DNA of 64,000 nucleotides from Thermococcus sp. 2319x1. Its GTDB lineage: Archaea > Methanobacteriota_B > Thermococci > Thermococcales > Thermococcaceae. Positions 47,208-55,055 of the stretch are shown piece after piece. The position numbers were made by a program, and so were the translations under genes. The number at the start of each line of letters is the position of its first letter. Position 1 is the first letter of the stretch. Under the pieces are notes generated by a model. That model searched no databases, had not been told where the DNA came from, and saw only the letters and a list, made by a program, of their open reading frames with translations. Location of the stretch: the NCBI RefSeq assembly GCF_001484685.1, contig NZ_CP012200.1, positions 1,172,321 to 1,236,320 of the forward strand, written 5' to 3'.

Positions 47208-47351
47208 TTAATGAAGTGTAAACACTATTACGAGGGTTCTCTCTTCAGTGATGTACCATCCTCCTTCATCCATTGCCCATCCAGCAGTAATCTTCCACTC
47301 CTGTTTCCCTGTTGTTTCAGGCTCTATTTTAATAGGTTCTACTGTTCCATC
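47208..47351 (-). pseudogene. Isolated C-terminal gene remnant
   Basis: An open frame on the minus strand without a proper start reads DGTVEPIKIEPETTGKQEWK, then ITAGWAMDEGGWYITEERTL and VIVFTLH to a stop. A TAG lies directly before it. The composition is that of a beta-rich exported protein like its neighbours at 47.4-51.5 kb, so it is probably the end of a lost gene of that cluster. Confidence 0.45.
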
Positions 47352-47405
47352 CTAAACCCCAAGAAGACGATTAACAAAAAACTTAAGAGAAACTAAGCAA
47401 ATTAT

Positions 47406-48794
47406 CTATTTTGTTGTCCCGCTCTCGAGGGATGATGGGCAAACATCGCCAATGCATGGGATAGACCCAAGCCCATCATCAACCATGGCAAAGTACATCC
47501 CAACCTCAACATTGTTAGAGTCCACAAGAGTTATGTCCCTCCTAATAATTGTCACGTAATAATACTGATTGGCCGCTCCATTAACAATGTCTATATTGTA
47601 AGCTATTACCGATTCTGAGCCTTCCGAGTATCCGAGTGTTATTGAAAGTGCTCCAACCACCGGGACTTTGCTCCATATCCAATTGAATCCATCTCCCCCA
47701 AGAGGCGTTGAGTAAAAGTCGTATCCAGACGAACCCTGAAAATCAAATACTATATTGTTGTACACCCTGTAGCTGTCCGTTTTTATTACTTTTTCTTCTG
47801 TTGTTGTTTGTTTAGTCGGGAAGTTGGACGATACCAAATAGTTCGTCAGTAACAATCCACTGTTCACGTCATTTTCATCGAGGTTGTGAGTTCCGGTCAG
47901 CATTACTTGAATGGGATAAACGCCCGCAATTGGAATTGTGCCATACTGCTGATTCCATTTATCATAAACGGGAACGTTGTATGTTGCGATAACGTATTTT
48001 AAAGGCAGGTTTATGTACCTCTCAAGATGACCGTTATCCGTAGGGATGCTCGGGCTGGGGGCGTAGCTTACCCTTAACGTTGAGCCCCCATAAGAGCTTC
48101 CAAAATCGATCATGGGTATTCCGTCAAGGTTAAAAGTCCACATTGCCCTCGTGTTTGAGGTTAACTGTATTCCCCATGAGGCACCCATCTTGTCAATTGT
48201 CTTATAACTTTCCGTTCTAACCTTCATTCCCATAAAGGGCACATACTCGGTGAATGTTCTCGAATCGGCATAATAAGAGTCTTTTAAGTATTCCCAGTTT
48301 TCTATTATGCAGTATCTGGAATTAAGCTCCTCGTAACCGTTCGGACACGAACTGCTCGTAAGAAGCGATTTCACAGTATTCCTAATCCTTGGGAGTATGG
48401 GAATTTCTAATTGGGGTTTTTTTGAGGGGTTAAAAACCTCATCAAGGTTTATCATTCCTTCAAGCTGTAAAGGTCTGTCTTTAACTACGCTTTTGATTCC
48501 AATATTTCCGTCCTTTGTAAAGTAAATTGCTATGGGTGTTGGTGGTGCTTTCAAGCCCCTCCCTTTGAGAGCCTTCTCCCAGTTTTTTGTTTCAGTTCGA
48601 AGTGAGAGAACCCCACCGGGGATGACACCTTGTTTTAAAAGTTTAACACCTCCTTCTGGTCGTGGCTGAAAGATGAAAACTTTGGCTTTCCCCTGAACGT
48701 TAATTTGTTCAATGCTTAAGTAGTTCGAAGTCGCCTGACCGAGTGCTGTTCCAACTATTAAGACCAGCATCAAACCTAAGAGTTTCCTCCACAT
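47406..48794 (-). CDS. Exported protein with signal peptide, unknown
   Basis: A 462-residue protein. The signal peptide is MWRKLLGLMLVLIVGTALGQ. The mature protein is beta-rich with Tyr, Ser and Thr (YCIIENWEYLKDSYYADSRT, TFNLDGIPMIDFGSSYGGST) and has Cys pairs (SSCPNGYEELNSRYC near residue 150, PCIGDVC near the end) that could form disulfides. There is no C-terminal anchor. Signal peptide and leader are nearly identical to those of 50654-51481. No family is recognised; probably a cell-surface or secreted protein. Confidence 0.7.
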   Translation of the reverse strand: MWRKLLGLMLVLIVGTALGQATSNYLSIEQINVQGKAKVFIFQPRPEGGVKLLKQGVIPGGVLSLRTETKNWEKALKGRGLKAPPTPIAIYFTKDGNIGIKSVVKDRPLQLEGMINLDEVFNPSKKPQLEIPILPRIRNTVKSLLTSSSCPNGYEELNSRYCIIENWEYLKDSYYADSRTFTEYVPFMGMKVRTESYKTIDKMGASWGIQLTSNTRAMWTFNLDGIPMIDFGSSYGGSTLRVSYAPSPSIPTDNGHLERYINLPLKYVIATYNVPVYDKWNQQYGTIPIAGVYPIQVMLTGTHNLDENDVNSGLLLTNYLVSSNFPTKQTTTEEKVIKTDSYRVYNNIVFDFQGSSGYDFYSTPLGGDGFNWIWSKVPVVGALSITLGYSEGSESVIAYNIDIVNGAANQYYYVTIIRRDITLVDSNNVEVGMYFAMVDDGLGSIPCIGDVCPSSLESGTTK

Positions 48795-48799
48795 TACGG

Positions 48800-48816
48800 A
48801 ACCTCCCTACGAGGTT
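48800..48816 (-). promoter_or_regulatory. Leader hairpin covering the Shine-Dalgarno site
   Basis: On the minus strand the leader reads AACCTC-GTAGG-GAGGTT, a six-pair hairpin that contains the GGGAGGT ribosome site five to eight bases before the ATG at 48794. It could hide the site until melted or bound. The same design is found at 51489-51501. Confidence 0.5.
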
Positions 48817-48850
48817 TTTACAGAACACTCTCCCCATGCTTGTTATCAAC

Positions 48851-49317
48851 CTACCTTAGAGTCGCTCTGCATTCTTTTTCTTTGCAATTTAGCTCAACTT
48901 TAAATTCCAATTTACTTGGAACAATAACACCAATCCACCAAACCTCATAAATCTGTATCTCTCCAGTGATTGTGTGATTTCCCGTTAAATTGGAATTCAA
49001 TGTGAATCCTATATACTCTCTAACATGCTCTTTTTTAATCAAAATATCGCTCTTAGTGTCAACTTTAATTAAAAATCCCTTAATGACAGGTAATTTGTTT
49101 TTAAATGCTAGATAACATCCAAAATATCTCCCGCTGGTGGTTTGTTGTGTAATATTCCAGCAATAAAGAGAAACTGCATAAGTAGGTTTGGAATAGTTTG
49201 TATATAGTAAGGATGCCTTTCAAAGCTATTCTCTAAGATTAGAGAATTTGTTGAAATCATTAAGTTAAACAGGATTATATAAAGAAAATAAAAAAGCAGA
49301 ATATCTCGTTTCCTCAT
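48851..49317 (-). pseudogene. Frameshifted exported/membrane-anchored protein
   Basis: The start (49317) gives a signal-like MRKRDILLFYFLYIILFNLM and then STNSLILENSFER. From about 49215 the coding character moves to another frame, without a start: KASLLYTNYSKPTYAVSLYC, then NITQQTTSGRYFGCYLAFKN, and on to IKKEHVREYIGFTLNSNLTG and VELNCKEKECRATLR at 48851. Loss of one A in a GAAAAGG-like stretch explains the break. The full protein would be about 155 residues with N-glycosylation-like NIT/NLT sites. A sequencing error is possible. Confidence 0.6.
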
Positions 49318-49964
49318 AGCTTTCCCCTATTTTTGTTTTTTACTATTGTGGCAAGATAGGGGCAGAATTTTTGGGCCAAAATCTTTGCCATCTCGTAATC
49401 ATATATCATGTGGGAGTCGTAATCATAAACCCAGTAGAGGCTGTAAGGTACTTCTGGGTCTGCTGCATTCCGAAGAACGTGCTCAGCTCGTTTGAAATAC
49501 CAGCCTGTGGCATCGTTTAGATATAGAGATGTTATTGGATCCGAGGAACACTCTTTGAGACTGTTTATTGCCTCTTCCCTTAATTTGAGGATAATTTTGG
49601 CTTTGTCTGTTAGACTTTTTGAACTGTTGAATTCCAATGCTAAGCTTTTAAACTCCTCAAGCCTCTCTGCAATGGCGATGGCGTAGAGAAGGTGATAATT
49701 TGCCGCTGAGTAGTATCCCTTTTGAAGGGCGATGATGCCTCTCTTTTTATGATAGTCCTTCCAATCACACGCAACTTTGGCCATCATCACGGTGATGTTG
49801 CAGGGTCTATCAACCTCTGATAAATTTTTCCTGAGCGTGTTCACCTTGTCTTTGAGCTCTGCAGGCTGGAAATCCCCGGTATCCACGTGCTTCATTAGTA
49901 TTAATGCATCTTCCAAAAAGCTCCTAGCGTATTCTAAATCACTTGTTATTTCGCTTCCCAACAA
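49314..49964 (-). CDS. Helical protein of the exported-protein cluster
   Basis: A 216-residue mostly helical protein from TTG 49964: LEYARSFLEDALILMKHVDT, VMMAKVACDWKDYHKKRGII and YYSAANYHLLYAIAIAERLE. Helix pairs resemble a TPR-like bundle. No signal peptide or membrane span is present. It begins two bases after the upstream gene and overlaps the next by four, so it is co-transcribed with them. The family is unknown. Similar helix composition to its neighbour (49967-50641) suggests they interact or are related. Confidence 0.6.
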   Translation of the reverse strand: MLGSEITSDLEYARSFLEDALILMKHVDTGDFQPAELKDKVNTLRKNLSEVDRPCNITVMMAKVACDWKDYHKKRGIIALQKGYYSAANYHLLYAIAIAERLEEFKSLALEFNSSKSLTDKAKIILKLREEAINSLKECSSDPITSLYLNDATGWYFKRAEHVLRNAADPEVPYSLYWVYDYDSHMIYDYEMAKILAQKFCPYLATIVKNKNRGKL

Positions 49965-49966
49965 TG

Positions 49967-50641
49967 TTAAGTTCTCAGTTTCTTCAGGGCGTATAGGACT
50001 GGGTTCTTTTTTAACTTCTCCAAAGAAATAGCGGACCTATTTAAAAAGAGCTCTGCTTCAATTAACTTGTGTTCTATTTTGAGTCCAGTGGTCATGTAGT
50101 CGGTAAATTCCACGCCATTCTTCACCCTATTTTTCCATTTTCTCTCAGCTTCATTCCAGAGAATCGTGATATTTTGAAGTTCTTTGGAAGCATAATCAAG
50201 GAACTCCTCTCTGTTTACGACTACAAGATGGGAGCCGAGATAATCTGATGCCAGTATTGCACAAACCCTTGCCTGTGTGAGGGCGTCATAAAATTCTCCC
50301 ATGTTATAAAAGGAGTATGTCTCGTTGAGGCATCTGTCCACGTCCTCAATTTTATTTTTAGAGACGTTTAGCTGTCTCAGCTTATCCATGAGCAGTAATA
50401 CCCTGCTGATGGCAACCCCGCTATCATTTTCATCTGCTTTTTGATTGAGATATGCGGAGTGAGTTGAATTGTAATTTAATTTGTAAGATTGAAGATGGGA
50501 TTCAACCAGCTTGATACTGGTGTTAAGGTCTAACTCCATTTCTTCTTGTGTTTTATGTTCCCGGTATTTTGAGTATGCAATGAAAATAGAGGCTGATAGG
50601 ATAAAAATAATAAAAAAAGCTGTGAATTTCTTTATATCCAT
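49967..50641 (-). CDS. Membrane-anchored helical protein
   Basis: A 224-residue protein. Residues 5-23 (KFTAFFIIFILSASIFIAYS) form an N-terminal anchor. The rest is helical: LDLNTSIKLVESHLQSYKLN, ISRVLLLMDKLRQLNVSKNK, GEFYDALTQARVCAILASDY. Several Asn-x-Ser/Thr sites fit an extracellular location. It follows the exported protein gene by 12 bases. No family is recognised. Confidence 0.6.
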   Translation of the reverse strand: MDIKKFTAFFIIFILSASIFIAYSKYREHKTQEEMELDLNTSIKLVESHLQSYKLNYNSTHSAYLNQKADENDSGVAISRVLLLMDKLRQLNVSKNKIEDVDRCLNETYSFYNMGEFYDALTQARVCAILASDYLGSHLVVVNREEFLDYASKELQNITILWNEAERKWKNRVKNGVEFTDYMTTGLKIEHKLIEAELFLNRSAISLEKLKKNPVLYALKKLRT

Positions 50642-50653
50642 AGAGAGATCCCC

Positions 50654-51481
50654 TCAGTTGTTTTTGTTTTCATAATAAATTCTTGTGACTGTTGTAACAC
50701 TTACGCTTCTTTCCGTTTCTCCAATGATGGAGGCTAGAGCAATGCGCTTTATCTCGGGGATGATTGGGATACTGTTATGGGAATATCCCGCAATGTATAG
50801 TGTCGCGCCCCCACTTATCTTGAATTCGTAATCAGCCTCCTGTGGGTTTACTATGCTCCAAGTCACTCCTGCACCGTAGTCGGTGCCTCTAAATCTTGAA
50901 TCCCCATAGAATCTAATTGTTATCTTCCTGACGTCATAGGCCACATCCCCTGAAGTTTGGATGGTGTAACTGCCCTTCTCACTCCTGCCAATGTTGAACA
51001 GGGGATCCATAAAGTTTGGCAATCCAAGAATCCCTGCTAATGCATCTACTGCCATTTTAAAGAACTCCCTGTACGCTACCTCTGTTTTTGACCCGCTGGA
51101 TCCCAAGTCTGCAACGAAGATGCCATTTGTACCAGTTAGTATCCCAACGTGGGTGGATATTGATGGTTTTATAACCTCGACAGAGAGCCAGTGCCCACTG
51201 CTAACCGGGTAATAATAGTGGTTCCATCCACTTTTCCATCCTTTTCCAAGTTTTACTCTAAGGACAAAGGTTTGTTGGGGCGTGGCGATGTCGTCCTGAT
51301 TGATTACTACTACTTTAGGTAGATAAGTGGAAGCTACGCCGACTTTACCTATGAAATGTCCGTTCCAGTAGTATGAATATGAATCATCCGCATTTGTCTC
51401 TGGTTCTGCAGCCCTAACAATTCCTCCAATTGCTCCCAAAACTAACAATCCCAGCATCAAACCTAAGAGTTTCCTCCACAT
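50654..51481 (-). CDS. Exported protein with signal peptide, unknown
   Basis: A 275-residue protein. The signal peptide MWRKLLGLMLGLLVLGAIGG continues to RAAEPE, a likely cleavage. The mature part is beta-rich (SYYWNGHFIGKVGVASTYLP, KVVVINQDDIATPQQTFVLR, IRFYGDSRFRGTDYGAGVTW). An ATTTTATAAAG box lies about 50 bases upstream (near 51534), so this gene probably heads the four-gene run down to 48851. The leader and signal-peptide region are a near copy of those of 47406-48794. Function unknown. Confidence 0.7.
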   Translation of the reverse strand: MWRKLLGLMLGLLVLGAIGGIVRAAEPETNADDSYSYYWNGHFIGKVGVASTYLPKVVVINQDDIATPQQTFVLRVKLGKGWKSGWNHYYYPVSSGHWLSVEVIKPSISTHVGILTGTNGIFVADLGSSGSKTEVAYREFFKMAVDALAGILGLPNFMDPLFNIGRSEKGSYTIQTSGDVAYDVRKITIRFYGDSRFRGTDYGAGVTWSIVNPQEADYEFKISGGATLYIAGYSHNSIPIIPEIKRIALASIIGETERSVSVTTVTRIYYENKNN

Positions 51482-51488
51482 TACCGAA

Positions 51489-51501
51489 CCTCCTTACGAG
51501 G
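51489..51501 (-). promoter_or_regulatory. Leader hairpin covering the Shine-Dalgarno site
   Basis: CCTC-GTAAG-GAGG on the minus strand places the AAGGAGGTT ribosome site in a four-pair hairpin just before ATG 51481. It corresponds to the hairpin at 48800-48816, with base changes in the loop and outer stem. Confidence 0.45.
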
Positions 51502-53042: not shown

Positions 53043-54314
53043 TTACTTTCTCCTAAACCTCAGCTTTGCCGTGAGGATTTTTTCTGTTGTGAAAAACCTT
53101 GCGGTTACAAACAGCGTTAGTGTTGAGATTGCTCCCAAATAGATTGCGCTGGCATACATTGTGGAATATTCTCCCATAAACATTGCCCTAGAAGCCAATA
53201 TCGGGTGGCTGAAGGGTATTGCCAGCAAAAGATACTTTATTGCCAGAGGCAAAGTTTCTATGTCCGCAAACATGAGTATGAACGTAGGAAAGGCTAAAGG
53301 CATTATTCCCGCACTTACCACGGTGTTTGCGCTCTTTGTGTCCTCTGCAAAAACAGCAAGCAGCATAGCGAAGCTCAAAGCGAATATCATGGCTAAAAAC
53401 ATTATAAGAACAAAAAGCGCCGCCCCTTGTGGAGTAACCGTCAGTCCAAGGTCTTCAAGAGAAATTCCAACCTGAGCTGAAGAAGTCAAGCTCCCGAGAT
53501 AGTTTCTCATACCAATCATATATGCTATTGCCGCTATTATGCCTATTACAGCCGTTCCTACCATTTTTCCAGCCACAATAGTTATCCTTTTAACGGGCAG
53601 AGTTAGGAGGGTTTCGAGAGTTTTGTTCTCCTTTTCCATAGCCATGCTCCCGGCCGACATCTGGGCAACCAGTATTATCATTATGAATATTACAATGGGC
53701 ATAGAAAAAGACTGAGACGCTATGATGTTCGCTACCAACGAAGGGGGAACGGCAACAATGCGCCCCTTAATTACGGTGAAGCTTTTTGCGTCTATTGGTC
53801 TTAGAATAGCCTCCGGGTCGCCTTCTATGTTCCGCTCTATTTTCAGCTTTGCAAGGTACTCATTAAGAACAGTTAAAACGGCGTTTATTCTACCTTCACT
53901 TACCGCTTCCCTCATGCCTCCACTTATCCCCTCGATTATGCCATAAACCTTCACCTGAGCCTTTTGGTTGTTCTCTATAGCCTTTGAAAAGTTCTTCGGG
54001 ATTATTACGATCATGTTGTAGTTTTTCTCTTGAGCTTTTTTGATAGCTTCATCAATGCTCAAGGCATCTATCTTGGTTAGAGTCACATTGGGGGCAGTTT
54101 CTAAAGCTTTGATCAGAAGATCGCCGTATTGCCCTTCGTCAAGGTTCACCAATACAACTTTAGTTTCCTCTTGAGCTTGCTGAAAGCCTACCTGCATCAT
54201 CTGTCCCAAGGCGGGATATATGATTAGCGGGACTATTATTATGCCAAAAATGAGTCCCTTGTCCCTCAGAAGGTCTTTGAGTTCTTTCATTACGAGTACC
54301 CAGAAGTCGCTCAT
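53043..54314 (-). CDS. ABC transporter permease (NatB-like)
   Basis: A 423-residue permease of the ABC-2 class: VMKELKDLLRDKGLIFGIII at the start, a large extracellular loop of about 150 residues (residues 45-195), then about six spans (IVIFIMIILVAQMSAGSM, KMVGTAVIGIIAAIAYMIGM, LFVLIMFLAMIFALSFAMLL). The topology matches NatB-type exporters. It follows the ATPase directly and is the last gene of the regulator-led operon. Confidence 0.85.
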   Translation of the reverse strand: MSDFWVLVMKELKDLLRDKGLIFGIIIVPLIIYPALGQMMQVGFQQAQEETKVVLVNLDEGQYGDLLIKALETAPNVTLTKIDALSIDEAIKKAQEKNYNMIVIIPKNFSKAIENNQKAQVKVYGIIEGISGGMREAVSEGRINAVLTVLNEYLAKLKIERNIEGDPEAILRPIDAKSFTVIKGRIVAVPPSLVANIIASQSFSMPIVIFIMIILVAQMSAGSMAMEKENKTLETLLTLPVKRITIVAGKMVGTAVIGIIAAIAYMIGMRNYLGSLTSSAQVGISLEDLGLTVTPQGAALFVLIMFLAMIFALSFAMLLAVFAEDTKSANTVVSAGIMPLAFPTFILMFADIETLPLAIKYLLLAIPFSHPILASRAMFMGEYSTMYASAIYLGAISTLTLFVTARFFTTEKILTAKLRFRRK

Positions 54315-55055
54315 TCAAACACCCCCACCGCCCGTTTGGATTATGGACATAAAGACCTCTTCGAGGTTTTCCGCTTCGTATTTTTCTTTCAGCTCTTTTG
54401 GAGTTCCAATTTCAACTATCACGCCACGGTTTATCAGAGCAACCCTATCACAGAGAAACTCCACCTCAAGCATGTTGTGACTCGAAACTAGAAATGTTAT
54501 CCCCTTCTCTCTTGCAAAACTCTTTATCGTCTGCCTTATGGAGTATGCGTTTATTATGTCCAGCCCGCTTGCCGGCTCATCCAGAATGGCAAGCTTGGGC
54601 TCAACCATCAAAGCCCTCGCAAGCAAAAGCTTTCTCGTCATACCCTTTGAGTACGTTGAAATTTTATCGTTCAGCCTATCTCCAAGGCCACTAAGCTTTA
54701 TGCCAAGCTCAAGCATCTCTTCATAGCTCTTTCCCGTTTTAGCATAAAGCTTTGCCATGAACTGGAGGTACTCAATCCCCTTGAGGTTCTTATAAGCCCC
54801 GGCTTCCTCCGGAAGGTAGCTTATGAGCTTCCTCACTTCATTTCCCTCTTTAACTACATCATGGCCAAAAACTTCAGCCCTTCCTCCCGTTGGAGTTAAT
54901 AAAGTTGCCAAAATCTTGAGCGTTGTGCTCTTTCCAGCGCCGTTAGGACCAATTAAGCCGAAGATTTCTCCCTCTTTAATCTCAAAGCTTATTCCTTTGA
55001 GAGCCTTAACCTTTCCATAATCCTTCTCAAGAGCTTCAACTTTTACAGCACTCAT
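54315..55055 (-). CDS. ABC transporter ATP-binding protein (NatA-like)
   Basis: A 246-residue ATPase: Walker [21 protein letters not shown], signature [20 protein letters not shown], Walker [14 protein letters not shown], switch [15 protein letters not shown]. It powers the NatB-like permease encoded next. Its start overlaps the HTH gene tail by four bases. Confidence 0.92.

What the first reader, a model, noticed from the sequence alone, without database searches (positions are those of the whole stretch)
48761..51501. Duplicated leader and signal peptide with SD-masking hairpins
The genes at 47406-48794 and 50654-51481 share roughly 50 almost identical bases covering leader, ribosome site and the first codons (MWRKLLGLML), but their mature proteins are unrelated by eye. 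In both, the ribosome site lies in an inverted repeat (AACCTC-GTAGG-GAGGTT; CCTC-GTAAG-GAGG). Base changes are mostly outside the pairing core. This looks like a mobile expression/export cassette with built-in translational control, possibly a heat-opened switch in a hyperthermophile.
Basis: partly seen in the sequence, partly recalled or inferred. Interest (0 to 1): 0.65.

Follow-up and report, generated by a model that had tools for sequence, protein, structure and literature searches.

The report
Swappable start-and-export cassette in archaea
In heat-loving Thermococcus-type archaea, one short stretch of DNA (ribosome site plus export signal, often with the promoter) sits in front of at least fourteen unrelated secreted proteins, and neighbouring species have different proteins plugged in behind it at the same chromosomal spot, so secreted proteins appear to be exchanged by recombination inside this shared 5' end.

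Summary
The genes at 47406-48794 (462 aa) and 50654-51481 (275 aa) share 48 of 50 bases from -19 to +31; their mature parts are unrelated by profile comparison. Related 5' cassettes, in two classes (MWRKLLGLMLGLL..., MRWKLLGVLLLGLL...), precede 14 unrelated secreted families in Thermococcaceae; the window's genome has four copies. At two sites, related genomes are homologous up to the signal peptide and unrelated after it. The window's 462-aa gene is a three-part mosaic: upstream from the old operon, leader and first 31 coding bases matching the local 275-aa gene, the rest matching a 462-aa gene of another genome. The reverse also occurs: one mature family with different leaders and signal peptides. 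Best explanation: terminal reassortment by recombination within the shared promoter-leader-signal-peptide segment. A downstream membrane partner, sometimes left without its secreted gene, suggests effector-immunity pairs; that is inference. The ribosome-site hairpin exists in both window copies and would melt near 85 C by model, but it is broken in many copies and shows no covariation, so the heat-switch reading is not supported.

The parts
51451..51500 (-). Class I cassette copy 1: leader with SD and first 31 coding bases of the 275-aa gene (-19..+31)
   Evidence: 48/50 identical to copy 2; profile score 73.2 bits
48764..48813 (-). Class I cassette copy 2: leader with SD and first 31 coding bases of the 462-aa gene (-19..+31)
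   Evidence: profile score 64.9 bits
51531..51539 (-). Putative TATA box (TTTTATAAA, -58..-50) of copy 1; copy 2 lacks one and lies inside the operon
   Evidence: read from the sequence; position fits TATA at -30..-20 from the start site in T. onnurineus (PMC5316973)
51487..51503 (-). SD-masking hairpin of copy 1 (AGCCTC-GTAAG-GAGGTT)
   Evidence: not conserved across copies
48800..48816 (-). SD-masking hairpin of copy 2 (AACCTC-GTAGG-GAGGTT)
   Evidence: not conserved across copies
50654..51481 (-). 275-aa secreted protein, unknown family, first gene of the operon
   Evidence: homologues in about a dozen Thermococcaceae genomes; no Pfam/NCBIfam hit
49314..50641 (-). Partner gene (about 430-460 aa, one N-terminal TM), frameshifted here into ORFs 49967-50641 and 49314-49964; intact in G078, G001, G052, G067
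48851..49317 (-). Second membrane-anchored partner-type gene (about 155 aa), broken here into ORFs 49108-49317 and 48851-49042; in G079 it directly follows a different cassette gene (450 aa)
47406..48794 (-). 462-aa secreted protein, mosaic gene: mature part like G055 (82% aa), 5' end like the local 275-aa gene
47350..47387 (-). 38-nt remnant (89-92% identical) of the small multi-TM gene that follows the 171-aa cassette gene elsewhere in this genome (L114) and in G077 (L103)

Best explanation
The shared stretch is a 5' module (SD leader plus Sec-type signal peptide, in several cases with the promoter) common to many unrelated secreted proteins of Thermococcaceae. New genes are made by terminal reassortment: homologous recombination within this short shared segment joins the resident promoter, leader and signal peptide to an incoming mature region (with its downstream membrane partner where present), so the incoming protein is at once expressed and exported. 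In the window, an operon that in a relative ends with a 317-aa protein received a 462-aa mature region, and the leader and first codons match the neighbouring 275-aa gene, as local gene conversion would leave them. Shown: the sharing, the unrelated mature parts, the in-situ swaps and the mosaic. Inferred: homologous recombination as mechanism, direction of the events, and the role of the products as secreted effectors with membrane-bound protective partners in conflict between cells.
For: (1) 14 mature families (blastp clusters at 1e-4) lie behind class I (9 families) and class II (5) cassettes. (2) Among 2636 non-homologous control pairs of genes with a hydrophobic N terminus the first 48 coding bases are at most 62% identical; 88% of class I and 83% of class II different-family pairs exceed this. 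Same-residue codons are identical at 0.43/0.55 against 0.26/0.25 expected, which argues against convergence. (3) In-situ swap 1: window vs G078 is mostly 70-98% identical from 51460 to 48761, then drops to chance inside the signal peptide; from the start codon onwards G078 matches G093. (4) In-situ swap 2: G088 vs G090, one 2.6-kb block at 79% ends about 70 bases into the gene; the G088 mature part is 83-98% identical to G093/G064. (5) Three-part mosaic of the 462-aa gene. (6) Reciprocal case: 462-family members elsewhere carry MKLKIVGVLLLTLLLTS... and a different leader; the 317 family has at least four signal-peptide versions. (7) Two cassettes on one contig with different mature parts recur in G064 (59 of the first 60 coding bases identical). 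(8) Marker replacement in Pyrococcus furiosus COM1 works with 40 nt of flanking homology (PMC3462420). (9) Most cassette genes are followed closely by a membrane-protein gene; partner genes or remnants survive without their secreted gene (G064 L147:163; the 48851-49317 gene).
Against: No recombination intermediate or strain-level pair was available; swaps are inferred from different species. The downstream-membrane-gene pattern is weak: 37% of all adjacent pairs and 65% (n=26) of pairs with a secreted-like first gene show it. No recognised toxin domain; the only assignable domains are peptidases and DUF6345 in class II. Structure models were unusable (mean pLDDT 28.7 and 31.5).
Confidence: 0.72

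Rival explanations
1. Ancient paralogues whose mature parts diverged beyond recognition while gene conversion kept the 5' ends alike.
For: Conversion of the 5' end is visible in the window (48/50 identity between two genes 2.7 kb apart) and in G064.
Against: At the same site mature parts differ completely between relatives whose flanks are 80-90% identical, while each mature family is well conserved elsewhere (82% for 462-aa, 75-78% for 317-aa). Divergence cannot do both. Profile comparison finds no relation.
Confidence: 0.12
2. A translational switch: the hairpin hides the SD at lower temperature and opens near the growth temperature, and selection on this element keeps the 5' ends alike.
For: Both window copies form a 6-bp stem over the SD with a modelled midpoint near 85 C.
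Against: No covariation over 16 copies; stem absent in G055 and in most 275-aa homologues; conservation is strongest in the coding part, where no such pairing is needed; class II leaders have a different sequence.
Confidence: 0.06
3. A mobile element of its own: the cassette is copied to new sites by an enzyme that recognises it.
For: Four copies in one genome, more than a dozen host families; transposase-like ORFs lie next to copies in L103 and L115.
Against: Copies carry no common mobility gene; homology of the swap pairs continues into the flank on one side, as in crossing-over, rather than ending at both cassette edges; no plasmid match for the 462-aa protein and no viral match for the 275-aa family.
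Confidence: 0.06
4. Convergence: Thermococcales signal peptides and SD leaders simply look alike.
For: Low-scoring profile matches (below about 25 bits) are probably generic signal peptides.
Against: Control pairs and codon identity; 90-97% identity that includes promoter and third codon positions in G088/G090.
Confidence: 0.02

Closest known systems
Terminal reassortment of type III effectors (ORPHETs; Stavrinides, Ma and Guttman 2006, from memory, paper not held)
   Same: A shared 5' region with upstream sequence and export signal is joined to unrelated C-terminal parts, creating new secreted proteins.
   Different: Here the export signal is a Sec-type signal peptide in hyperthermophilic archaea, breakpoints lie inside the signal-peptide codons, and a membrane partner gene often follows.
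VARTIG loci of Thermococcales (Makarova et al. 2021, PMC8416519)
   Same: Same archaeal order, secreted protein first in the operon, small membrane proteins after it, exchange between species, remnants and pseudogenes.
   Different: VARTIG centres on a large Ig-domain protein with a variable C-terminal Ig domain; here the constant part is only the 5' leader and signal peptide, the whole mature protein is exchanged, and no Ig domain was found.
Polymorphic toxin systems
   Same: Constant N-terminal export part, variable C-terminal part, downstream partner gene, orphan partner genes.
   Different: No trafficking domain beyond the signal peptide and no recognised toxin or immunity domain.
SD-sequestering RNA thermometers (fourU/ROSE type)
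   Same: SD pairs with an upstream stretch in both window copies.
   Different: Stem not conserved among copies and without covariation.

Membership tests
Terminal reassortment (ORPHET-like) genes | Identical 5' end (upstream plus export signal) joined to non-homologous C-terminal parts | tested here: met
Terminal reassortment (ORPHET-like) genes | Export signal functional in the new context | not testable with these tools
   Needs secretion assay; signal peptides keep K/R start, Leu-rich core and Ala-type end by eye
VARTIG | Large (>500 aa) Ig-domain arCOG07710 protein at the 5' end of the operon | tested here: not met
   First gene is 275 aa; no Ig or CARDB hit in the cassette proteins scanned
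VARTIG | Followed by small membrane proteins | tested here: inconclusive
   Present in most loci, but background is high
Polymorphic toxin system | Recognisable toxin domain at the C terminus | tested here: not met
   Pfam, NCBIfam, PADLOC: no toxin domain; only Trypsin, Peptidase_C39_2 and DUF6345 in class II
Polymorphic toxin system | Downstream immunity gene | tested here: inconclusive
   Membrane partner genes and orphans seen; function not tested
RNA thermometer | Conserved pairing of the SD, supported by compensatory change | tested here: not met
   69.8% of cells paired vs 67.9% shuffled; 2 double changes vs 1.8 expected
RNA thermometer | Melting within the growth range | tested here: inconclusive
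   Model midpoint about 85 C for the window copies, about 75 C for G078-317, none for G055
Mobile element | Own transposase or integrase, or defined ends | tested here: inconclusive
   No common mobility gene in the loci; transposase-like ORFs only beside L103 and L115 copies; terminal repeats not systematically searched

The most novel reading that the evidence does not exclude
Thermococcales carry an open-ended, polymorphic arsenal of secreted effectors and membrane-bound protective partners that is diversified by recombination at a roughly 50-140-base promoter-leader-signal-peptide docking sequence; incoming effector-partner pairs are taken up by natural transformation and expressed at once, and displaced partner genes remain as a record of past arms.
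Probability: 0.35. Interest if true: 0.8.

Novelty: new variant of a known kind. Interest (0 to 1): 0.62.

Why it matters
It shows, with breakpoints located to within tens of bases, how hyperthermophilic archaea can exchange whole secreted proteins behind a constant 5' end. The VARTIG authors stated that recombination sites could not be placed for lack of close genomes (PMC8416519); here two in-situ swaps and one three-part mosaic place them in the signal-peptide segment of a different set of genes. The cassette is also a practical handle for finding unannotated secreted proteins (nearly all families here lack any database name) and their partners, and it makes a direct test possible in a naturally competent laboratory archaeon.

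Tried and rejected
SD-masking switch: folding at five temperatures and covariation count; not supported. Remote homology of the mature proteins: hhalign, Pfam/NCBIfam/PADLOC, PDB by sequence; nothing. AlphaFold2 of the 275- and 462-aa proteins: mean pLDDT 28.7 and 31.5, so no fold search was run. Plasmid search with the 462-aa protein and viral contig search with the 275-aa family: no matches. Genome-contig scan gave only two named relatives, both Thermococcus MAGs. A first blastp cluster joined the G047 331-aa protein to the class II protease family at E about 0.004 over 32 residues; at 1e-4 it stands alone, so that link was dropped. An early clustering also joined the 450- and 317-aa proteins, an artefact of leaving the signal peptide in (vs 63). 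Enrichment of membrane genes downstream is only suggestive because the background is high.

Full report
Observation. The pattern is unique to these two places in the window, with none expected by chance. Both copies can form a short hairpin over the ribosome site.

Setting. The window lies in a single-contig genome of 1.96 Mb (G000), a Thermococcaceae member by its relatives. On the minus strand the genes run 275-aa secreted protein, a partner protein with one N-terminal TM segment (about 450 aa in relatives), a smaller membrane-anchored protein (about 155 aa in G079), and the 462-aa secreted protein. The two middle genes are broken by frameshifts in this genome; the first is intact in G078 and the second in G079. 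The pair 275-aa plus partner also occurs in G001, G052, G067, G016, G007 and G011, and with a broken 275-aa gene in G022 and G008.

More copies. A sequence-only profile of 16 copies (R1) finds further cassettes in the family. With a second class that shares the layout (R2, built from MRWKLLGVLLLGLL... genes), the copies precede 14 mature-protein families that do not match each other at 1e-4. Weaker candidates (206-aa in G070, 116-aa in G084, 337-aa in G014) were left out of that count. G000 itself holds four copies: two here, one before a 171-aa protein at 1,480.9 kb and one of class II before a 451-aa protein with a trypsin-like domain at 410.6 kb.

Not convergence. Among 2636 pairs of non-homologous genes with hydrophobic N termini taken from the same loci, the first 48 coding bases are at most 62% identical. 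Pairs of cassette genes from different families exceed this in 88% (class I) and 83% (class II) of cases. Where two cassettes encode the same residue, they use the same codon in 43% and 55% of cases against 26% and 25% expected from codon use. Leaders of class II, and of some class I pairs, are also alike beyond controls. One caution: the cassettes were collected by similarity, so the test shows that these genes share DNA ancestry at their 5' ends, not how common that is.

Swaps in place. Window against G078: mostly 70-98% identity through the whole operon (two middle genes included) down to 48761, then chance level; G078 has a 317-aa protein there, with a small membrane protein behind it. G088 against G090: one aligned block of 2.6 kb that ends about 70 bases into the gene; behind it G088 has the 317-aa family and G090 an unrelated 222-aa protein. 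From the signal peptide onwards the G088 gene matches G093 and G064 at 83-98%, while upstream it does not. In both cases the overlap of the two homologies is the cassette. The window's 462-aa gene is a mosaic of three: -57..-20 like the G078 operon (18/18 in -57..-40 after a one-base shift), -19..+31 like the local 275-aa gene (48/50), from +32 like the 462-aa gene of G055. Conversely, most other close members of the 462 family carry a different leader and signal peptide, MKLKIVGVLLLTLLLTS..., and the 317 family carries at least four signal-peptide versions.

Mechanism. The simplest reading is homologous recombination within a shared 50-140-base segment. P. furiosus COM1 is naturally competent and replaces markers with 40 nt of flanking homology (PMC3462420), so the segment is long enough. 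The segment carries what an incoming mature region needs: in copy 1 and in G088/G090 a TATA-like box near -55, an SD, a start codon and a signal peptide. With TATA boxes 20-30 bases before start sites in T. onnurineus (PMC5316973) the transcript would begin near the start of the conserved leader; this is inference. Copy 2 in the window has no such box and is presumably read from the operon.

What the products do. Unknown. Class I proteins have no assignable domain; class II includes a trypsin-like and a C39-like peptidase and a DUF6345 protein. A gene for a membrane-anchored or multi-TM protein usually follows within about 20 bases. Three observations fit an effector with a protective partner: the small gene at 48851-49317 follows a different secreted protein (450 aa) in G079 but stands without it here and in G078; in G064 a signal peptide is fused directly to the remnant of a partner gene whose secreted protein (331 aa in G047) is gone; and downstream of the 462-aa gene a 38-base remnant of the 171-aa protein's small membrane gene remains. 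Against over-reading: 37% of all adjacent gene pairs and 65% of those with a secreted-like first gene have a membrane protein second.

Hairpin. The stems in the window are real, and nearest-neighbour folding gives a midpoint near 85 C, so a heat-opened switch cannot be excluded on energy for these two copies. Over 16 copies, however, the paired fraction is that of shuffled columns and double changes are at chance; the G055 copy has none. I therefore do not support the switch.

Known systems. It works like terminal reassortment of exported effectors (ORPHETs, from memory). It resembles VARTIG in order, layout and inter-species exchange (PMC8416519) but lacks the Ig-domain protein that defines VARTIG. 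It resembles polymorphic toxin systems in layout only. I searched the held literature for a description of shared signal-peptide cassettes in Thermococcales and found none; that is a limited search.

Noticed in passing
49314-50641 and 48851-49317 (-): Both middle genes of the operon are frameshifted in this genome but open in relatives (G078, G079), so the operon is decaying here while its two secreted genes stay open.
   Followed up: partly
L155:6645, L159:6342, L160:5937, L161:7396, L162:1734 and 3572, L163:6264, L164:5741: Second class of promoter-leader-signal-peptide cassette (leader TTATGAAAA..GTGGTGATG.CA, MRWKLLGVLLLGLLILGSFGSA) before at least five unrelated secreted families, including trypsin-like and C39-like peptidases.
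   Followed up: partly
L147:163 (-): Signal peptide of a class I cassette fused to the N-terminal part of a membrane partner gene whose secreted gene (331 aa in G047) has been deleted.
   Followed up: partly
L103:6543-8871, L115:7661-8336: Transposase-like ORFs immediately beside two cassette genes.
   Followed up: no
L101:9172-9420: Degraded remnant of the 382-aa cassette family (G035) downstream of the 450-aa gene and its membrane partner in G079, as if an older secreted gene had been displaced.
   Followed up: partly
L097:11200-12153 and L115:6943-7563: The 317-aa and 206-aa proteins have a Gly/Ala-rich hydrophobic stretch near the C terminus, a possible membrane-inserting segment.
   Followed up: no
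window 53043-55055; L098:7242-9409; L102:5051-5773: ABC transporter genes lie near several cassette loci; not tested for enrichment.
   Followed up: no
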